From IMG/VR virus record IMGVR_UViG_3300031746_000042, positions 1 through 47,376 of that record: 47,376 nucleotides of DNA, one strand, 5' to 3'. The notes below the pieces were generated by a model. The model saw nothing but the letters and a program-made list of their open reading frames with translations, did not search any database and had not been told where the DNA came from. Below are positions 6,736-39,848 of the stretch, piece after piece; the stretch's first letter is position 1; every line of letters begins with the position of its first letter. A program made the position numbers and the translations under genes. The DNA is from a virus.

Positions 6736-6779
6736 GGGCACGCGGCATCAACCGTCAGCGCGGTGCGGGCCGCGTGCCC
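6736..6779 (+). ncRNA. Long stem-loop in the leader of the next gene
   Basis: Ten bases at 6736-6745 (GGGCACGCGG) pair perfectly with 6770-6779, closing a 24-nt loop. It ends 23 bases before the ATG at 6803 and lacks a T-tract. It could act as an RNA stability or translation-control element. Confidence 0.5.
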
Positions 6780-6802
6780 TGGACGAAAAGGGGGACAAGC
6801 AT

Positions 6803-7015
6803 ATGAAGAGCTTCGTAATGTACCATCTCACCATCGTAGAGAACGGGTTCATAGTCGGAAGCGACACCGACAACAGCCGTTGGGTGTTCACGTCCCGCTT
6901 TGACGCCCTCGTGTTCCTATCCGAGTGCATGTTGAAGCTGCGGCCTGAGAGCCAGCCTGACACGGTTGAGATACGCAAGATCGCCTACAACGGGGACGCT
7001 CCGGCAGCGAAGTAG
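6803..7015 (+). CDS. Small protein with ENGF motif, 70 aa (paralogue 2 of 3)
   Basis: ATG 6803 follows GGGGGA. The core HLTIVENGFIVGSDTDNSRW aligns with the product of 6458-6700, and is followed by a helix (DALVFLSECMLKL). The two genes are only 100 bases apart, so a local duplication is likely. It is the last gene before the tRNA. Function unknown. Confidence 0.7.
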   Translation: MKSFVMYHLTIVENGFIVGSDTDNSRWVFTSRFDALVFLSECMLKLRPESQPDTVEIRKIAYNGDAPAAK

Positions 7016-7022
7016 CGAGAAC

Positions 7023-7117
7023 GCCGGCGTGGCGGAACGGTAGACGCGGCGCTCTTCTAAAGCAATGCCGCTGCTTTCCACAGCAGCATCCGGGTTCAAG
7101 TCCCGGCGCCGGCACCA
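7023..7117 (+). tRNA. Class II tRNA with Leu-like body and aberrant anticodon arm
   Basis: A 7-bp acceptor stem (GCCGGCG with CGCCGGC) ends in an encoded ACCA. The D-arm GCGGAACGGTAGACGC is Leu-like. A long variable arm (GCTGCT/AGCAGC) and a perfect T-arm (CCGGG-TTCAAGT-CCCGG) follow. The anticodon arm is irregular: the only good fold is GGC-GCT / AGC-AAT-GCC with a 3-nt bulge. The loop CTTCTAA would give UCU; shifting by one gives CUA, and by two UAA. I do not assign an amino acid. It may be a decayed or specialised tRNA. Confidence 0.65.
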
Positions 7118-7123
7118 GTTTGG

Positions 7124-7273
7124 CAGGCGGAGCACGCGCGGCAGCGCGGGTGGGGTAGGTACGGGGCGTCACTTGCGGGGCGGTGTTTCAGGCCGCCAGG
7201 GCCTGCTGGCCCACTAAGCGGGGCGCCACGTGGAGCAACAAGGGGTGCTGGGTTGGAATCCGGCCTCCGCCTG
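7124..7273 (+). ncRNA. tRNA-like structure 1 (about 148 nt)
   Basis: The ends pair for 9 bp (7124-7132 with 7265-7273), plus G-T and A-T pairs outside. A T-arm-like hairpin (GCTGG, 8-nt loop GTTGGAAT, CCGGC; 7247-7264) abuts the closing stem with no gap, as in tRNA. A D-like hairpin (CGCGC-GGCA-GCGCG) follows the 5' strand. Inside lies an arm GGCGGT-GTTTCAG-GCCGCC (7179-7197) with a 7-nt loop that would show UUC. A GGGCC/GGCCC hairpin follows. No CCA is encoded. It differs from a normal tRNA by about 50 extra bases. Confidence 0.45.
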
Positions 7274-7293
7274 TTACAGTTGGAGGTGAGAAA

Positions 7294-7461
7294 ATGGGAG
7301 ACATCGTAGAAGTCAGTGAGGTTGAAGACGTGGCGGAAGGAGACGGGATCGAGTTAGAGCCGGGTGAGGCGAAAGAAGTGGCGCGGGCGGTTGAGGATAA
7401 ACTGGAAGGCATGATCCGCGACGCGATCCGCAAGCAACTCCAAGATCGACACAACTACTAG
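7294..7461 (+). CDS. Small acidic protein, 55 aa
   Basis: TTGGAGGTG precedes ATG 7294. The product is very acidic (VEDVAEGDGIELEPGEAKEV) with a charged helix at the end. It sits between two tRNA-like structures. No family is recognised; DNA mimicry by small acidic phage proteins is known, but nothing specific supports it here. Confidence 0.6.
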   Translation: MGDIVEVSEVEDVAEGDGIELEPGEAKEVARAVEDKLEGMIRDAIRKQLQDRHNY

Positions 7462-7467
7462 GTTTTG

Positions 7468-7615
7468 GCGGGCGAGGCGGCGTGGAGAGACACGCCTGAA
7501 GACTGCTAGGTCGGGGCGTAGGGCGCAGGATGTTCTTTGTCCGAGTGTGGGCTACGGGTCTATAGCCCCAACCCACCGCGACCCCAAAGCCGGTGTAAGT
7601 CCGGCCCTCGCCCGC
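7468..7615 (+). ncRNA. tRNA-like structure 2 (148 nt)
   Basis: A perfect 10-bp closing stem (7468-7477 GCGGGCGAGG with 7606-7615) abuts a T-arm-like hairpin GCCGG-TGTAAGT-CCGGC (7589-7605). A D-like hairpin GGCGTG-GAGAGA-CACGCC (7479-7496) follows the 5' strand. A GGGCTA/TAGCCC hairpin (7549-7568) lies in the middle. There is no long reading frame and no CCA. The order of arms repeats that of the structures at 7124 and 7749. Confidence 0.45.
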
Positions 7616-7630
7616 TGGTTGATGCGTTGT

Positions 7631-7734
7631 GGCCCGCCCCGAGGGGGCGGCGGGGCGGGCCTCCGTTCGTACCGCTCGTCGCCAGCTTGTCCTGGCCGGG
7701 CGCGCTGCACCCCGCGAGGAGAGGCCGGCACAGG
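7631..7734 (+). other. Two strong hairpins between tRNA-like structures
   Basis: Bases 7631-7640 pair perfectly with 7652-7661 (10 bp, only G and C). Bases 7691-7699 pair with 7725-7734 (9 bp with one bulged A). I find no credible gene. The stretch seems to be part of a structured transcript covering 7462-7935; the first hairpin could also serve as a terminator, though no T-tract follows. Confidence 0.5.
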
Positions 7735-7748
7735 GCGTTAAGGTTTAC

Positions 7749-7896
7749 GGCGACGTAGCGTGGCGGTTCCACGCCGGGGGAGCGCAGCGGGGTAGGCCAC
7801 CCGTAAACGGCTCTCCTGTTCGCCTCTTCCGAGAGGAAGGGCGCGCGCATCCTGCAGCTACAGAGATGCGCGGTCGGTTCAACTCCGGCCGTCGCC
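7749..7896 (+). ncRNA. tRNA-like structure 3 (148 nt)
   Basis: A 7-bp acceptor-like stem (GGCGACG with CGTCGCC) is followed by TA, as at tRNA positions 8-9, and by a D-like hairpin GCGTGG-CGGTT-CCACGC (7758-7774). The T-arm GTCGG-TTCAACT-CCGGC (7873-7889) has a canonical T-loop and abuts the acceptor. An 8-bp arm (7844-7851 with 7865-7872, loop of 13) touches the T-arm like a long variable arm. CCTCT-TCCG-AGAGG lies upstream of it. The first 27 bases closely match those of the structure at 7468. No CCA is encoded. Confidence 0.5.
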
Positions 7897-7935: not shown

Positions 7936-8253
7936 GTGAAACCTAGTTCATGCACGTACCCGTCCGAGTGCTGCGCACTAAAAGCGCGGGACCGGCAACT
8001 GCACTGGCAGCGCATGATGTTACGCGTTGCGGTCAAGCGATTGGGCGGGAAGTTCGAGGTGACAACGGAGGACATGGTAGCCGCACAGGACTTCCTAGTC
8101 ACTCGAACGACGCGGGAAACGCTGGATACCACTGTTTACGGCCTTGAGATCGAGGAAATCCAGCGTGTTCAGGGAAGGCCGGCGTCTAAGTCGGGGCAAC
8201 GGGCCGTGATTATGCCGGCCATGCGGTTCGCTTCGGAATGTGATTCCGACTAA
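7936..8253 (+). CDS. Hypothetical protein, 105 aa
   Basis: AGGAGGAGGTG stands before GTG 7936. The N terminus carries Cys residues (CTYPSECCALKARDRQLHWQ), then a helix and a region like a winged helix (VTTEDMVAAQDFLVTR). It precedes the primase-helicase gene. No family is recognised. Confidence 0.6.
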   Translation: MKPSSCTYPSECCALKARDRQLHWQRMMLRVAVKRLGGKFEVTTEDMVAAQDFLVTRTTRETLDTTVYGLEIEEIQRVQGRPASKSGQRAVIMPAMRFASECDSD

Positions 8254-8297: not shown

Positions 8298-10772
8298 TTG
8301 TACGCGCCGGTGTTCGAGCGGTACACCCGCGTCACAAGCGGGCGGAACTACGCCGGAGAGCGGGCAGCCATCTGTCCGTTCCACGGCGATAATAAACCAT
8401 CACTCTCGTTCAATGATGATACCGGCCTTTGGAAATGTTTCGCCTGCGGCAAAAGCGGCAGCGCCGTTACGTTCGTCCAGGCGGTTGAGCAATGCACCCA
8501 CGACCACGCTGATGCTCTCGTCAACGACCTGCTGAACGTGAGCTTGCCCACACCTACAAAGATCGCCGCTTGGCACGCGACACTCGTAACCACGCCCGAC
8601 GTCCTGCACTACCTCGAAAGCCGCGGTATCGGCGACGTGGAAGTGTTAAAATACTACAACGTTGGGTTTGACGGCGAACGTGTGACGATTCCCATCCACG
8701 ACGAGGAAGGGAACCTGGTCAACGTCCGCCGCATGGCTGCGCAACGCGCGGCGAAGAACAAGGTCATCAACACACCGGGCCACGGCCAGATGCGGCTCTG
8801 GCCCTTGGAAAGCCTGTCGGGCGAAGGCCCGATTATCGTCTGTGAAGGTGAAACCGACTGCCTCAGCATCCTGCATCAAGGGGCGCGCGCCGTAACCTCC
8901 ACCGGCGGGGCCGGCGGCTGGCGCCAGGAGTGGGGCGCGCTCTTCCGCGGCCAGGACGTCGTGATCGCCTTCGACGGCGACGACCCCGGCCGGCGTGGCG
9001 CTGAGAAGGTCTGCGCGTCGCTGGCGGACCACGCCGCATCGGTCACGGTATTGGAAATGCCCGACGCTACGGACGTCAACGACCTGCACTGTGCCGGCCA
9101 CCGGCTGGACAACCTGATCATAGCGGCGACACCGGCTGCGGCGGGTGAGCAGCGCGACGAAGTGCTGGACCTGATGAAGGACATTCCAACACTGGGCGAC
9201 CTCCCGAAAGAGGCGATGATCACAGAGCAGATCGCGTGGACGAAACGGCTGGCCGCCGCGTTGGCGAAGCTCCCCGAAACGCGCCGCGCGTACTACATCG
9301 CGGAAGCTGCCAGGATGCTCAGCGTGTCTACCAAGGTTATTAGGGATGAGATCAGGGCCGTCGAACTTCAAGTTCTTATCCCCACCATTCCGGAGCCGCT
9401 GGCTGAACCACGTCAGGCTGACATGTGCCTGGCGCAGGATTGGACGCGCGGGCGGTTTCACATCGGCGTCTGGCTGCCGACGCAACGTGGCGTCTACACG
9501 TTCCGGCTTATCACCAGCGACCACCGGATGGTCGAAGCGCCGGAGGGCATCGGCGCGCCTGGCGACGCCGCGCGGTGGAGCGTCGATAGCGTCACCGATT
9601 ATAATGTGTTCGCGTGGCTCAACGCGCGCACCGTGACGGTAGATCCCGCCGAGCTACAGGCTGAAATCGAAGGGCTGTTCAGGACGTACATGTGGTATCC
9701 ACACGAGGACGCATACAAGGTGCTATCGTTGTGGGTCATGGCGTCCTACGTGTTTATGCTCTATGATTGCTGCGCCTACCTCGCCATGACGGGCACGAAG
9801 CGCGCCGGCAAGACACGAACGTTAGAGCTTATCGAACATTTGGCGTGGAACGCGCTTAAGGTGTCGTCTTTCTCCGCCAGCTATCTCTTCCGCGCCGTCG
9901 CCGCCGGTCGGAATACGCTGCTGTTCGACGAATCGGACATTCTCAGTGCGGCCGCCCGCGGTGGTCAGGAAGTGGATGAGCGCCTGGCCGTCGTGCTGGA
10001 CGGCTACCGCCGGTCGGGCAAGACCGGACGCGTCGAGGGCGAGAACAACACCCCACGCACGTACCCCACGTACTCGCCCAAAGCCTTCGCCTCAATGTTC
10101 GGCCTTCCCGACATGGTGACGGATCGCGCCATCATGATCGAAGTACTGCGGCGGACATCTGATACTCCTATCACCAGCCTTGTCACTGCCGAGATCGCCC
10201 CTGCATGTCAGGTACTGCGCAACAAGCTCTATTGCTTCGCCCTGGAGAATACGTCACAGCTAAACACGCTGCGCCAAACAGTTACGTCGGCGGCTACCGG
10301 GTTATTCGACCGCGAGTTCGAGATATGGCAACCGTTATTGAGCATCGCAGTGCTGTGCGGCGGCGACGCTTACCAGTGCGCGCTTGGCTATGCGCACGCC
10401 AGCCACGCCTCAAAGAAGGCGGCAGAACGTGAAACCTCCATGACCAGCGCCGCTATCCTGACGTGCCAGCGCCTGCTCATTGAGGAGGAACCGGATCTTT
10501 TGGACGCACAAGGCAAGTGGTACGCGCGGGCGCGCATCCGGCGGCGGGTGGCCGAAATCATGGAGCGTGATGAAGAGCAAGTGCGCCCTGAGCGCATTCG
10601 CATGGAACTGATCAAGACGGGTATTCTTTCCACATCTGGAACCTCAGTAAAGCAGATTTGGTCCGGCACAAGTCGCGGGCAGCGCATCTACTGTTTAAAC
10701 CCAGACCTGGTGATGAAAGCCGCTCAGAGGTTCGACGTGACAGAAATTGGAACAATATTCAGTGATGTATAG
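8298..10772 (+). CDS. Primase-helicase: CHC2 zinc finger, TOPRIM and ATPase domains
   Basis: 824 aa. A CHC2 zinc finger (CPFH at 26-29, CFAC at 47-50) and a TOPRIM domain (VCEGETD near 178, FDGDDPG near 220) form the primase half, which would lay RNA primers. The C-terminal half carries a P-loop (GTKRAGKTRT near 498) and Walker B (LLFDESD near 540), as in phage ATPases fused to primases. The TTG start has AGGGGGTGG seven bases upstream. With the polymerase and helicase it completes a replication set. The ATPase is not a clear DnaB-type helicase, so unwinding is inferred. Confidence 0.9.
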   Translation: MYAPVFERYTRVTSGRNYAGERAAICPFHGDNKPSLSFNDDTGLWKCFACGKSGSAVTFVQAVEQCTHDHADALVNDLLNVSLPTPTKIAAWHATLVTTPDVLHYLESRGIGDVEVLKYYNVGFDGERVTIPIHDEEGNLVNVRRMAAQRAAKNKVINTPGHGQMRLWPLESLSGEGPIIVCEGETDCLSILHQGARAVTSTGGAGGWRQEWGALFRGQDVVIAFDGDDPGRRGAEKVCASLADHAASVTVLEMPDATDVNDLHCAGHRLDNLIIAATPAAAGEQRDEVLDLMKDIPTLGDLPKEAMITEQIAWTKRLAAALAKLPETRRAYYIAEAARMLSVSTKVIRDEIRAVELQVLIPTIPEPLAEPRQADMCLAQDWTRGRFHIGVWLPTQRGVYTFRLITSDHRMVEAPEGIGAPGDAARWSVDSVTDYNVFAWLNARTVTVDPAELQAEIEGLFRTYMWYPHEDAYKVLSLWVMASYVFMLYDCCAYLAMTGTKRAGKTRTLELIEHLAWNALKVSSFSASYLFRAVAAGRNTLLFDESDILSAAARGGQEVDERLAVVLDGYRRSGKTGRVEGENNTPRTYPTYSPKAFASMFGLPDMVTDRAIMIEVLRRTSDTPITSLVTAEIAPACQVLRNKLYCFALENTSQLNTLRQTVTSAATGLFDREFEIWQPLLSIAVLCGGDAYQCALGYAHASHASKKAAERETSMTSAAILTCQRLLIEEEPDLLDAQGKWYARARIRRRVAEIMERDEEQVRPERIRMELIKTGILSTSGTSVKQIWSGTSRGQRIYCLNPDLVMKAAQRFDVTEIGTIFSDV

Positions 10773-12054: not shown

Positions 12055-12546
12055 GTGTTTGAGCGTGGTGTGAGCGTCAACTGGCCCGGTTCAGCAGCCG
12101 AAGTGGATGAACTTTGCCGACTGATCGAAGTGTGGAAGGAACGGCTGCGGCTAATGGACTGGCGCATTGATGTCAACGCGCAGGCGCCGCACAAGATTGA
12201 GCCGAAAGACGCCTACGCAACCTGCGCAGCGCAACCTGAGATCCAGTTCGCCCTGATAGCCATAGGCTGGCCCCCAGCTGCCTATGGTGCGGGGTACTCG
12301 CTGGAACAGACCGTTATCCACGAACTCATTCACGCCGTGTTGTCACCGGTGTTCAAGGTGTGGGAACACCTGGTGGAAGACGCCGGCCCGTTCGCCGGCC
12401 CGGTAGCGGTAGCGTTGGCGGCCGCCACGGATCTTGCTGAGGTGGCCGTAGACAAGCTAGCCTGTGCGTTGAGGGGGTTGAGCGATGGCGATCAGAATAA
12501 TGCGGACGACGGGACGCATGGCGCAGGCGGCGAGGGAAGCGTGTGA
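12055..12546 (+). CDS. Putative zinc metallopeptidase with HELIH motif
   Basis: 163 aa. The helix TVIHELIHAVL carries HExxH (His 89, Glu 90, His 93), the zinc site of minimal gluzincin-like or SprT-like peptidases. A later Glu in the helix DLAEVAVDKLACAL could be the third ligand. No signal peptide is visible, so it acts in the cell. The end overlaps the polymerase gene by 62 bases. The substrate is unknown. Confidence 0.65.
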   Translation: MFERGVSVNWPGSAAEVDELCRLIEVWKERLRLMDWRIDVNAQAPHKIEPKDAYATCAAQPEIQFALIAIGWPPAAYGAGYSLEQTVIHELIHAVLSPVFKVWEHLVEDAGPFAGPVAVALAAATDLAEVAVDKLACALRGLSDGDQNNADDGTHGAGGEGSV

Positions 12547-14815
12547 GCGTTGCGGCCTAGCCGACTGCCTGTACGTACCTGGCTGCGGGCCGCTAGCCGC
12601 CCGCGTGGTCATCGTCGGGGAGGCGCCGGGCGATGTCGAGGCCGCACGTGGCGTGCCGTTCGTCGGCCCTGCGGGCCGCCTGCTTGACCAGATACTGGCT
12701 GAGGTCGGCATCGACCGCGAGGAGTGCTACGTCACGAATGCCTGCCTTTGCCGGCCGCGGACGCCCGAAGGCGCGCACCGCAATCCTACAGATGATGAGA
12801 TCGCGTGCTGCCGCGACCGGCTCCTCGACGAGGTGGCCGGCAGGGCGCCGGACCTTGTTATCCTGTGCGGCGCAACGCCGCTAAAGGCAGTGCTGGGCAA
12901 GGGCAAAATCAGCGACGAAAACGGGCTGGTCCAGTGGTGCGAGGACGTGAAGGCCCACGTCATGCCGGTCTTCCATCCCAGCGCGGCGCTGCACAAGCCG
13001 GGCTATTACATTGACATCGTTAAGGCTTTCCGCAAGGCGGCGCAAGTGTTGCATAACCCGTCGTCGGTACGCGTCGGCGCGCCCGGCGTCGAGCGGTTCA
13101 TCCTGGAGACACGCGACGACGTGGACGCACTATGCGCCCGCCTGGCGGAGTTTACCCGCGTGACCATCGACGAGGAGCACGGCAGCCAGGGGCAGCTGTT
13201 GTGCTTGGGCCTTTCCTACCACCCCGGCACGGCGGTCGTCCTGCCCCGGCACCTGTGCGAAGACCGCTACTGCTTGACGCGTCTTGATGAAGTCCTGGCC
13301 AGGATGCAGGTGGTCGGCCAGAACATCAAGTCCGACTTAAAGACGCTTTGGCGGCACGGTATGCCCCGCTTGACGACCGGCGGCGACCTCCTCCTGGCGC
13401 ACTACCTGTACTCCGGGATGCCAGGCGACCATGACCTGGAGAGCATCCTGGTCGAGCTTTTAAACGTGCCGCCGTACAAGCACATGGTGGCACGACATGT
13501 AAAGTGTATGGAGGAGTGCCCACCCGCCTTGCTGCACGAGTATAACGGCTATGACGCCGCGTACACGCATCTGGCATTCCTCGACATCGAGCAGCGGCTG
13601 ACGCCGGAGGAGCGCGCCTTCCTGGAAGGGGTGCTGTACCCCGCCAGTGACGCACTGGCGCGGATGGAGTATGTTGGTGTCCTCGTTGACGTTGCCCGGT
13701 GCGCTGAGGTTGAGGCGACGCTATCCACTCAAATTGCGGCGGCGAAGACGCAGATGTACGCCGCAGCGGGCGGCGAGTTCAACCCCAACTACTGGAAAGA
13801 TGTCTGCAACGTGCTGTACGGTGTGCTCGGGCTGCCTCTCGCACCGCGTGGGAAGATGTCGTCGGATGAAGAGAACCTAACCCGGTTGTCTGAAACCACC
13901 GATAGCCTGGTGCCCGGACTGGTCCTGGAGTACCGCAAGTTGAGCAAGCTCTACAGCACTTACGTGCAAAAGCTGCCGTCGCTCTTGGACAGCGCAAACC
14001 GGCTGCACACAACCTATAACCTCAACACGACGCGAACGGGTCGCTTGTCTTCCAAAGAGCCTAACCTCCAGAACATCCCACATGGCAGCACCATCCATCA
14101 GCTGTACGTGCCGTCGCTCGGCTGCGTCATGGTTCAGGGCGACCTGTCCCAAGCCGAGGTGCGCGTCCTGGCACTTTTCAGCAAGGATAAGGTGCTGCTC
14201 GACGCGGTGGAGGGCGCCGACGTACACCGCAGCATGGCTGCCGCAGTTTTCAAGAAGCAACCGGAGGATGTCACAAGCGTTGAGCGCACGTCGGCGAAGC
14301 GTGCCACCTTCGGCATCATGTACGGCATAACGGCGCGCGGCCTAGCGCGTAGCGTTGGATGCTCCGAGCCAGAAGCGCAGGGGATCATCGACAGGTTCTT
14401 CGCCGCGCTGCCGCAGGTGCGCGAGTGGATCGAATCCACGAAGCGTGAGGCGATGCGCACCGGCGTCGTGCGCACGCCGTTCGGGCGCCGGCGCGTGTTA
14501 AACTTCGGCGCTGAGAACACGGAGGTTATCCTGCGCCAGGCTGTGAACACGCCCATCCAGAGCACGGCCAGCGACATCTGCCTGGCTGGGCTGGTACGGC
14601 ACGACCGACGCCTGCTCGACGATCCCGGCCGGCGCCTGCTCCTGACGGTGCACGATTCGATCAGTGTTGAAGTGCCCGTAGGCACGCACGACCAGGCGTG
14701 CGCTGAACTCAAGCAGGACATGGAGTTCATGTGGGACGGCGTGCACTTCCGCGCCGACGTCAGCTTCGGGCCGTCATGGGGCGCATTAGAAGACTGGGAG
14801 GTGACAGGATCATGA
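12485..14815 (+). CDS. Uracil-DNA glycosylase / family A DNA polymerase fusion
   Basis: 776 aa. The N-terminal 200 residues match family 4 uracil-DNA glycosylase: CERC Fe-S ligands, GEAPG, PFVGPAG, NACLCRP and HPSAA. Next is a 3'-5' exonuclease (TIDEEHG near 226, GQNIKSDLKTL, YNGYDAAYTH). The polymerase has motif A QGDLSQAEVR near 551, motif B RTSAKRATFGIMYG near 602 and motif C VHDS near 723. It would copy phage DNA, proofread and remove uracil in one chain. The ATG at 12485 follows GAGGGGGTT. Confidence 0.93.
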   Translation: MAIRIMRTTGRMAQAAREACERCGLADCLYVPGCGPLAARVVIVGEAPGDVEAARGVPFVGPAGRLLDQILAEVGIDREECYVTNACLCRPRTPEGAHRNPTDDEIACCRDRLLDEVAGRAPDLVILCGATPLKAVLGKGKISDENGLVQWCEDVKAHVMPVFHPSAALHKPGYYIDIVKAFRKAAQVLHNPSSVRVGAPGVERFILETRDDVDALCARLAEFTRVTIDEEHGSQGQLLCLGLSYHPGTAVVLPRHLCEDRYCLTRLDEVLARMQVVGQNIKSDLKTLWRHGMPRLTTGGDLLLAHYLYSGMPGDHDLESILVELLNVPPYKHMVARHVKCMEECPPALLHEYNGYDAAYTHLAFLDIEQRLTPEERAFLEGVLYPASDALARMEYVGVLVDVARCAEVEATLSTQIAAAKTQMYAAAGGEFNPNYWKDVCNVLYGVLGLPLAPRGKMSSDEENLTRLSETTDSLVPGLVLEYRKLSKLYSTYVQKLPSLLDSANRLHTTYNLNTTRTGRLSSKEPNLQNIPHGSTIHQLYVPSLGCVMVQGDLSQAEVRVLALFSKDKVLLDAVEGADVHRSMAAAVFKKQPEDVTSVERTSAKRATFGIMYGITARGLARSVGCSEPEAQGIIDRFFAALPQVREWIESTKREAMRTGVVRTPFGRRRVLNFGAENTEVILRQAVNTPIQSTASDICLAGLVRHDRRLLDDPGRRLLLTVHDSISVEVPVGTHDQACAELKQDMEFMWDGVHFRADVSFGPSWGALEDWEVTGS

Positions 14816-39477: not shown

Positions 39478-39535
39478 GTTTCGACGAACCTTGAAAACGA
39501 CGTGCAATGACAAGCTGTCACTTGTCTAGCACGGC

Positions 39536-39551
39536 GCGGGGAAAACCCCGC
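39536..39551 (+). terminator. Hairpin after the small early unit
   Basis: GCGGGG-AAAA-CCCCGC, a 6-bp stem, follows the 39286-39477 gene by 58 bases. No T-tract. Confidence 0.45.
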
Positions 39552-39594
39552 CATACTGGCGCCCTAATCCTCGACAGGGATTGTACACCTAAGC

Positions 39595-39609
39595 AACACG
39601 TCACGTGTT
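39595..39609. promoter_or_regulatory. Operator-like palindrome
   Basis: AACACGT-C-ACGTGTT, two perfect 7-base half-sites with a single centre base. It overlaps a TTGACA box (39608-39613). It has the size expected of a XRE-type repressor site. Confidence 0.5.
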
Positions 39610-39797
39610 GACAGCAGGTGACGCGCCAAAACAGTGTACCATGGGCGCAAAAACGACTAATGACGGCATAGGTGCAGGACTAGCACTAGCCCTGCCGGCC
39701 AGCACAACTAACTGCCAATAGTCTATCCTGACGGCGCGCTTTCCGGTGCAAGGTGGCTCCTTGTACGACAGCGGCGCGCGGCCACAGGGAGGGATAT

Positions 39798-39817
39798 GTT
39801 GCATGGTAACATGCAAC
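39798..39817 (+). promoter_or_regulatory. Hairpin GTTGCATG/CATGCAAC
   Basis: A perfect 8-bp stem with loop GTAA, directly joined to direct repeats TGCAACTACT spaced 14 bases apart. It could be part of an origin or an operator array. Confidence 0.45.
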
Positions 39818-39848
39818 TACTATGCTGCAACTACTGCACTACTACCTA

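What the first reader, a model, noticed from the sequence alone, without database searches (positions are those of the whole stretch)
7124..7896. Cluster of three tRNA-like RNAs of about 148 nt
Three segments (7124-7273, 7468-7615, 7749-7896) each have a 7-10 bp closing stem. A T-arm-like hairpin joins it without a gap, a D-like hairpin sits near the 5' end, and 111-117 nt lie between closing stem and T-arm. The second and third share their first 27 bases closely. A normal tRNA has about 60 nt there. They follow a real class II tRNA. I know no RNA family of this form; they could be tRNA mimics that act as decoys for anticodon nucleases, as processing signals, or as oversized tRNAs.
Basis: seen in the sequence. 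Interest (0 to 1): 0.8.

Follow-up and report, generated by a model that had tools for sequence, protein, structure and literature searches.

The report
Oversized tRNA-like RNAs in a phage
An uncultured phage carries, just behind a tRNA gene, a cluster of folded RNAs about 150 bases long, at least one built like a tRNA whose decoding arm is replaced by other hairpins; the nearest known relative in kind is an RNA of phage T4 whose job is still unknown.

Summary
Structured RNAs really are present at 7123-7896, but the three are unequal. RNA3 (7749-7896) has a 7-bp acceptor-like stem, U8-A9, a D-like hairpin and a canonical T-arm (loop TTCAACT). It folds far better than shuffles (z -5.2), and nearly all of this is kept in a related phage. 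RNA2 (7467-7616) has a real fold: 29 substitutions against the relative, four pairs changed on both sides, none broken, fold energy better than in 300 of 300 permutations. Its T-loop is not conserved. RNA1 (7123-7275) is conserved (6 changes in 155) but its fold and T-arm are uncertain. No Rfam family matches any of them, and no reading frame is kept across the cluster.

I find that it has the same plan, a 7-position closing stem abutting a T-arm with a hairpin just before it, with strong covariation in seven phages. The window RNAs share that plan and setting, not its sequence. Most likely they are tRNA-shaped RNAs cut out by host tRNA-processing enzymes and acting as decoys or scaffolds; processing and function are inferred.

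The parts
7023..7117 (+). tRNA-Arg(UCU)-type tRNA gene with a long (class II) variable arm and encoded CCA; anticodon arm has a bulge
   Evidence: ARAGORN; Rfam tRNA 45.4 bits; one change in 95 nt against the relative
7123..7275 (+). RNA1: conserved G+C-rich element with a closing stem of at least 9 bp; the tRNA-like inner fold is uncertain
   Evidence: 6 substitutions in 155 columns, all inside 7185-7207; z -1.2
7294..7461 (+). small ORF of 55 aa with a Shine-Dalgarno sequence, between RNA1 and RNA2; no known family
   Evidence: frame kept in the relative; 21 changes in 159 nt, 10 of them at third positions; no Pfam or PHROG match
7467..7616 (+). RNA2: 11-bp closing stem, D-like hairpin, branched centre, abutting T-arm-like hairpin whose loop is not conserved
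   Evidence: four double compensatory changes, no broken pair; energy beats 300 of 300 permutations
7617..7740 (+). element X: noncoding stretch between RNA2 and RNA3, strongly conserved over its first part, with two predicted hairpins; may belong to the same transcript
   Evidence: 11 changes in 134 columns, most of them in the last 25; structure test inconclusive, P 0.08
7749..7896 (+). RNA3: the clearest tRNA-like RNA (148 nt): 7-bp acceptor-like stem, U8-A9, D-like hairpin, two extra hairpins in place of an anticodon arm, variable-arm-like hairpin, T-arm with loop TTCAACT; no CCA
7873..7896 (+). RNA3 T-arm plus 3' strand of the acceptor-like stem, identical in the related phage
7936..8253 (+). 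ORF of 105 aa behind RNA3; the relative carries one extra ORF between RNA3 and this one
   Evidence: frame conserved; extra ORF at L003:9351-9641

Best explanation
The locus makes tRNA-shaped noncoding RNAs of about 150 nt from the phage's replication-gene operon. RNA3, and less perfectly RNA2, keep the acceptor/T-arm half of a tRNA, the part that RNase P and other tRNA-processing enzymes measure, while the decoding half is replaced by other helices. Host tRNA-processing enzymes then cut them out of the polycistronic transcript together with tRNA-Arg, leaving stable RNAs that cannot decode and that act in trans by occupying a tRNA-binding host protein (a decoy) or as a scaffold. Shown here: a conserved fold (RNA2, RNA3), the tRNA-like half (RNA3), no conserved reading frame, and the same plan in T4 species 1 RNA. 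Inferred: excision by host enzymes, stability, and action as decoy or scaffold. I put about 0.7 on a tRNA-like structured RNA excised from the transcript and about 0.25 on the decoy role itself.
For: Substitutions between two phages keep RNA2 folded (-71.4 against -54.8 +/- 5.2 for permuted changes, 0 of 300 as good) with four double changes. RNA3 z -5.2, perfect 7-bp stem and T-arm kept in both phages, called by ARAGORN with an insert of about 60 nt in both, at a background of 6 calls in fifty 47-kb shuffles. RNA1, RNA3 and tRNA-Arg change less than the protein genes beside them. T4 rnaC has the same plan: 7-position closing stem abutting a T-arm with a hairpin just before it; 23 of 48 pairs show double changes across seven phages, against 7.7 in shuffles, and the Yersinia phage restores two closing-stem pairs that are U.U mismatches in the others. 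rnaC lies behind tRNA-Arg(UCU) and rnaD in T4 and inside tRNA clusters in relatives. It is seen on Northern blots, function unknown (PMC9697503).
Against: Only one relative covers the cluster, so covariation rests on a pair of genomes. RNA2's T-loop is lost in the relative, and RNA1 has no clear T-arm. None of the three encodes CCA. A model of T4 species 1 RNA does not hit RNA1-3. The RNA3 model scores RNA2 at 22.5 bits, but also ordinary tRNAs at 19-20 and unrelated sequence up to 17, so it shows tRNA-likeness, not descent. No transcript data were available.
Confidence: 0.55

Rival explanations
1. tRNA punctuation: the elements act only in cis. Host RNase P or RNase Z cuts at them to separate the mRNAs of the operon, and the released RNAs are by-products.
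For: RNA1, RNA2 and RNA3 alternate with ORFs on one strand, and each ORF start follows an element with its own Shine-Dalgarno sequence. RNA3 has the 12-bp acceptor/T stack.
Against: A cutting signal needs only the acceptor/T half, yet the long centres are conserved too: RNA2's inner stretches stay fixed while its stems covary, and RNA1 is 96% identical.
Confidence: 0.25
2. Structured leaders: RNA1 and RNA3 are 5' UTR elements that control translation of the ORFs at 7294 and 7936.
For: RNA1 ends 18 nt and RNA3 about 40 nt before a start codon.
Against: RNA2 has no ORF directly behind it. In the relative an extra ORF lies between RNA3 and the ORF it would control. No switching alternative fold was identified.
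Confidence: 0.12
3. Decaying or intron-bearing tRNA genes: ordinary tRNAs that gained inserts and are being lost, or that are spliced.
For: ARAGORN models RNA3 as tRNA-Ala(cgc) with a 60-nt insert.
Against: The fitted anticodon stem is poor, all modelled pairs of RNA2 and RNA3 survive divergence, and the insert itself is folded and conserved.
Confidence: 0.06
4. Replication origin acting as DNA, with hairpins next to the primase gene.
For: Noncoding and next to replication genes.
Against: Cumulative GC skew has its extremes at 18.4 and 40.4 kb, not here; one-sided G-C to G-T changes are the kind RNA tolerates.
Confidence: 0.03

Closest known systems
T4 species 1 RNA (rnaC / RNAC) and its orthologues in Straboviridae
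   Same: Size 139 nt against 148-154; tRNA-Arg(UCU) upstream in the same cluster; 7-position closing stem abutting a T-arm; a hairpin just 5' of the T-arm; no anticodon arm, no CCA; not in Rfam.
   Different: No sequence or covariance-model match to RNA1-3. T4 has one long central hairpin and no D-like hairpin, and its closing stem usually carries two U.U mismatches. The window has up to three elements, placed among replication genes.
Class II tRNA
   Same: Acceptor/T half, U8-A9 and variable-arm-like hairpin of RNA3.
   Different: No conserved anticodon arm, 148 nt instead of about 90, no CCA, below the Rfam tRNA threshold.
tmRNA (SsrA)
   Same: A tRNA-like end with a long insert in place of the anticodon arm.
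   Different: A stemmed D-like hairpin, no G3.U70 pair (C3-G70 in RNA3), no tag frame, 148 nt, no Rfam or default ARAGORN call.
GOLLD and ROOL phage RNAs
   Same: Structured phage RNAs of unknown function near tRNA islands (PMC12286853).
   Different: Several hundred nt, no Rfam match here, and no tRNA-like closure in their description.

Membership tests
tRNA (RF00005) | covariance-model score above the gathering threshold | tested here: not met
   only 7023-7114 passes; RNA1-3 give no tRNA match even at E up to 5
tRNA (RF00005) | 7-bp acceptor joined to a 5-bp T-arm with T54, A58 loop | tested here: met
   RNA3 in both phages. RNA2 only in the window, its loop differs in the relative; RNA1 unclear
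tRNA (RF00005) | anticodon arm with a 7-nt loop and U33 | tested here: not met
   no conserved arm of that form in the folds; the ARAGORN intron fit has a poor stem
tRNA (RF00005) | CCA end and aminoacylation | not testable with these tools
   CCA is not encoded in RNA1-3; addition afterwards cannot be tested
T4 species 1 RNA | match to a model built from seven orthologues (R3) | tested here: not met
   R3 finds the window's tRNA-Arg (20.2 bits) but none of RNA1-3
T4 species 1 RNA | 7-position closing stem abutting a T-arm, hairpin directly 5' of it | tested here: met
   RNA3 and T4 with orthologues
T4 species 1 RNA | stable discrete transcript in infected cells | not testable with these tools
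   shown for T4 (PMC9697503); no data for this phage
tmRNA | G3.U70 acceptor pair, tag frame, pseudoknots, Rfam match | tested here: not met
   RNA3 has C3-G70; no Rfam hit and no default ARAGORN call
GOLLD / ROOL | Rfam covariance-model match | tested here: not met
   no match at E up to 5

The most novel reading that the evidence does not exclude
Oversized tRNA-like RNAs without a decoding arm are a widespread class of phage RNA that arose repeatedly from tRNAs (T4 species 1 RNA, this cluster, L072:5830-5951 and perhaps L004:7687-7823) and act as decoys or inhibitors of host tRNA-binding proteins, including tRNA-cutting defence enzymes.
Probability: 0.2. Interest if true: 0.85.

Novelty: new variant of a known kind. 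Interest (0 to 1): 0.55.

Why it matters
T4 RNAC is still described as of unknown function. Showing that it is closed like a tRNA, with covariation, and that an unrelated phage has a cluster of RNAs of the same plan in a similar place, turns an isolated oddity into a possible class. It also gives testable predictions: RNase P cleavage, binding to tRNA-elbow proteins, and protection from tRNA-targeting defence.

Tried and rejected
Rfam at gathering and relaxed thresholds: only the tRNA. More relatives: eight scans of viral contigs and one of genome contigs gave only IMGVR_3300031999_000040 over this region; others were fragments or distant. BLAST against 50,697 phage records: no real match. RNA3 model as proof of common descent with RNA2 and L004: rejected after the filters-off run, where tRNAs score 19-20 bits and noise reaches 17.2. 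RNA2 model hits on RNA1 and RNA3 are at noise, E 2.5-2.9. Generic scan for oversized acceptor/T-arm elements: 3 perfect hits in 1.43 Mb against 1.0 expected, so not significant by itself. L004:7687-7823 next to an integrase may be an attachment site or chance. L072:5830-5951 is better (tRNA-Leu/Ser-type D-arm) but single. The R1 and R3 models found no new members in 78-80 primase-bearing phage loci. Protein frame across the cluster: rejected. Literature searches found no phage tRNA-mimic family of this form in the held library.

Full report
What the window is. The window is a 47-kb IMG/VR virus record. Its genes point to a tailed phage: SNF2-type helicase, PD-(D/E)XK nuclease, Sak4-like AAA protein, DnaG-type primase, a uracil-DNA-glycosylase/family A DNA polymerase fusion, SU10-type portal and terminase. 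Close relatives in public data are few. One contig, IMGVR_UViG_3300031999_000040 (48 kb), covers the region of interest at 91% identity.

Checking the observation. Between the ORF ending at 7015 and the primase gene at 8298 lie tRNA-Arg(UCU) (7023-7117), RNA1, a 55-aa ORF, RNA2, a conserved noncoding stretch (X), RNA3 and a 105-aa ORF, all on the + strand. RNA3 is exactly as described: a 7-bp stem, two unpaired bases TA, a D-like hairpin, then further hairpins, then a T-arm with loop TTCAACT joined to the stem without a gap. Its fold energy is 5.2 standard deviations better than shuffled sequence. RNA2 has an 11-bp closing stem and an abutting hairpin (z -2.9). RNA1 has a long closing stem, but its abutting hairpin does not fit a T-arm well and its energy is ordinary for such G+C-rich DNA (z -1.2). 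A stem abutting a hairpin is common by chance here, but with T54 and A58 in the loop only two + strand places in the genome qualify, both in this cluster, against 0.1 expected.

Evidence that the folds are real. Against the related phage, RNA2 has 29 substitutions and two extra bases. The two-sequence consensus keeps all 52 pairs, with four changed on both sides (T-A to C-G three times, G-C to A-T once) and five on one side. When the same substitutions are moved to random positions of the same base, the consensus energy averages -54.8 kcal/mol (sd 5.2); the real value is -71.4, better than all 300 trials. RNA3 has seven substitutions: five fall in pairs and keep them, and the energy test gives P 0.06. 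RNA1 has six substitutions, all within 7185-7207, too few to test. The whole seven-base loop of RNA2's T-arm-like hairpin differs (TGTAAGT against GCGCGAC) while its stem is unchanged, so that loop is not a T-loop under constraint. Both RNA2 and RNA3 differ by two bases in the D-like loop, which breaks any reading frame across them.

How tRNA-like they are. ARAGORN, when inserts in the anticodon loop are allowed, calls RNA3 in both phages as a tRNA with an insert of about 60 nt; fifty shuffled windows gave six such calls in all. The anticodon stem it fits is poor, so I read RNA3 as a tRNA-like RNA without a decoding arm. A covariance model of RNA3 alone scores RNA2 at 22.5 bits, the best place outside RNA3, but with filters off the window's own tRNA gets 20.1, a T4 tRNA 19.4, and unrelated sequence up to 17.2. 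This supports tRNA-likeness of RNA2 and does not prove descent from a common RNA.

The closest known thing. In T4, two small stable RNAs, rnaD (119 nt) and rnaC or species 1 RNA (139 nt), directly follow tRNA-Arg. I folded rnaC with six orthologues (Enterobacter phages CIP9 and SonariX, Salmonella phages KM16 and Melville, Yersinia phage fHe-Yen9-01, E. coli phage FP43). The consensus is a 7-position closing stem (CGRTTCG/CGTTYCG) directly joined to a 5-bp T-arm, with a 10-bp hairpin just before it and a long central hairpin. Across seven sequences 23 of 48 pairs show changes on both sides, against 7.7 in shuffles and at most 6 in slid controls. The Yersinia phage has T-A and C-G where the others have two U.U mismatches, which completes seven pairs. 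rnaC has no Rfam family. In SonariX part of it is annotated as a tRNA-Met. A 2022 study confirms RNAC and RNAD by Northern blot and calls their functions unknown (PMC9697503). A model of T4 rnaC does not find RNA1-3, so these are not members of that family by sequence; the resemblance is in plan, size and setting.

Other possible cases. In 1.25 Mb around primase genes of 78 other viral loci, ARAGORN with inserts gave one oversized call, L072:5830-5951 in a phage of 34% G+C, with a typical Leu/Ser-type D-arm and a canonical T-arm, just upstream of an ORF that looks like a single-strand DNA-binding protein (that reading of the ORF was not tested). L004:7687-7823 is similar but lies beside an ORF taken for an integrase and may be an attachment site or chance. 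A generic scan gave three perfect hits in 1.43 Mb against one expected, so the wider class remains a suggestion.

Most likely mechanism. Shown: conserved folded RNA (RNA2, RNA3), a tRNA-like half (RNA3), co-orientation with a tRNA and replication genes, and a T4 RNA of the same plan. Inferred: RNase P recognises the 12-bp acceptor/T stack of RNA3 and cuts at its 5' end; the products are stable; the replaced centre prevents decoding and gives each RNA its own binding surface. A trans role as decoy or scaffold fits the conservation of the centres better than a pure cutting signal does, but processing in cis is a serious rival. The neighbouring tRNA-Arg(UCU) does not look like a codon supplement: AGA makes up 7 of 8175 codons counted in 16 large ORFs, and its anticodon arm is imperfect.

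Verdict. A real, partly misread observation: one clear tRNA-like RNA, one firmly structured RNA with a looser likeness, and one conserved element of uncertain fold. The nearest known kind is T4 species 1 RNA, itself unexplained.

Noticed in passing
L098:1409-1547 (T4 rnaC) with L101-L106: T4 species 1 RNA shows a tRNA-like closure (7-position stem abutting a T-arm) with strong covariation across seven phages; it has no Rfam family.
   Followed up: yes
L103:354-448 (SonariX): Annotated as tRNA-Met, but it is part of the species 1 RNA orthologue.
   Followed up: partly
7617-7740: Noncoding stretch between RNA2 and RNA3, conserved except near its 3' end, with a 31-nt G+C-rich hairpin at 7632-7662; may be a fourth RNA or join RNA2 and RNA3 into one transcript.
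   Followed up: partly
7023-7117: Class II-type tRNA with anticodon UCU and a bulged anticodon stem; AGA is almost unused by the phage (7 of 8175 codons), so its role in decoding is doubtful.
   Followed up: partly
12485-14815: Uracil-DNA-glycosylase domain fused to a family A DNA polymerase in one ORF (Pfam).
   Followed up: no
L072:5830-5951: Oversized (122 nt) tRNA-like element in a phage of 34% G+C, just upstream of an ORF that looks like a single-strand DNA-binding protein.
   Followed up: partly
L004:7687-7823: tRNA-like element of 137 nt with an 8-bp acceptor-like stem and canonical T-arm beside an ORF taken for an integrase (minus strand); possibly an attachment site.
   Followed up: partly
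39501-39650: Lowest fold-energy z-score (-4.4) in a coarse scan of the window; lies mostly in a noncoding stretch (39514-39821).
   Followed up: no
L003:9351-9641: The related phage has an extra ORF between RNA3 and the next gene, flanked by short copies of GTGAAACC.
   Followed up: partly
6736-6780: Long G+C-rich hairpin (GGGCACGCGG...CCGCGTGCCC) before the ORF at 6803; the relative lacks 15 nt of its loop side but keeps the stem.
   Followed up: no
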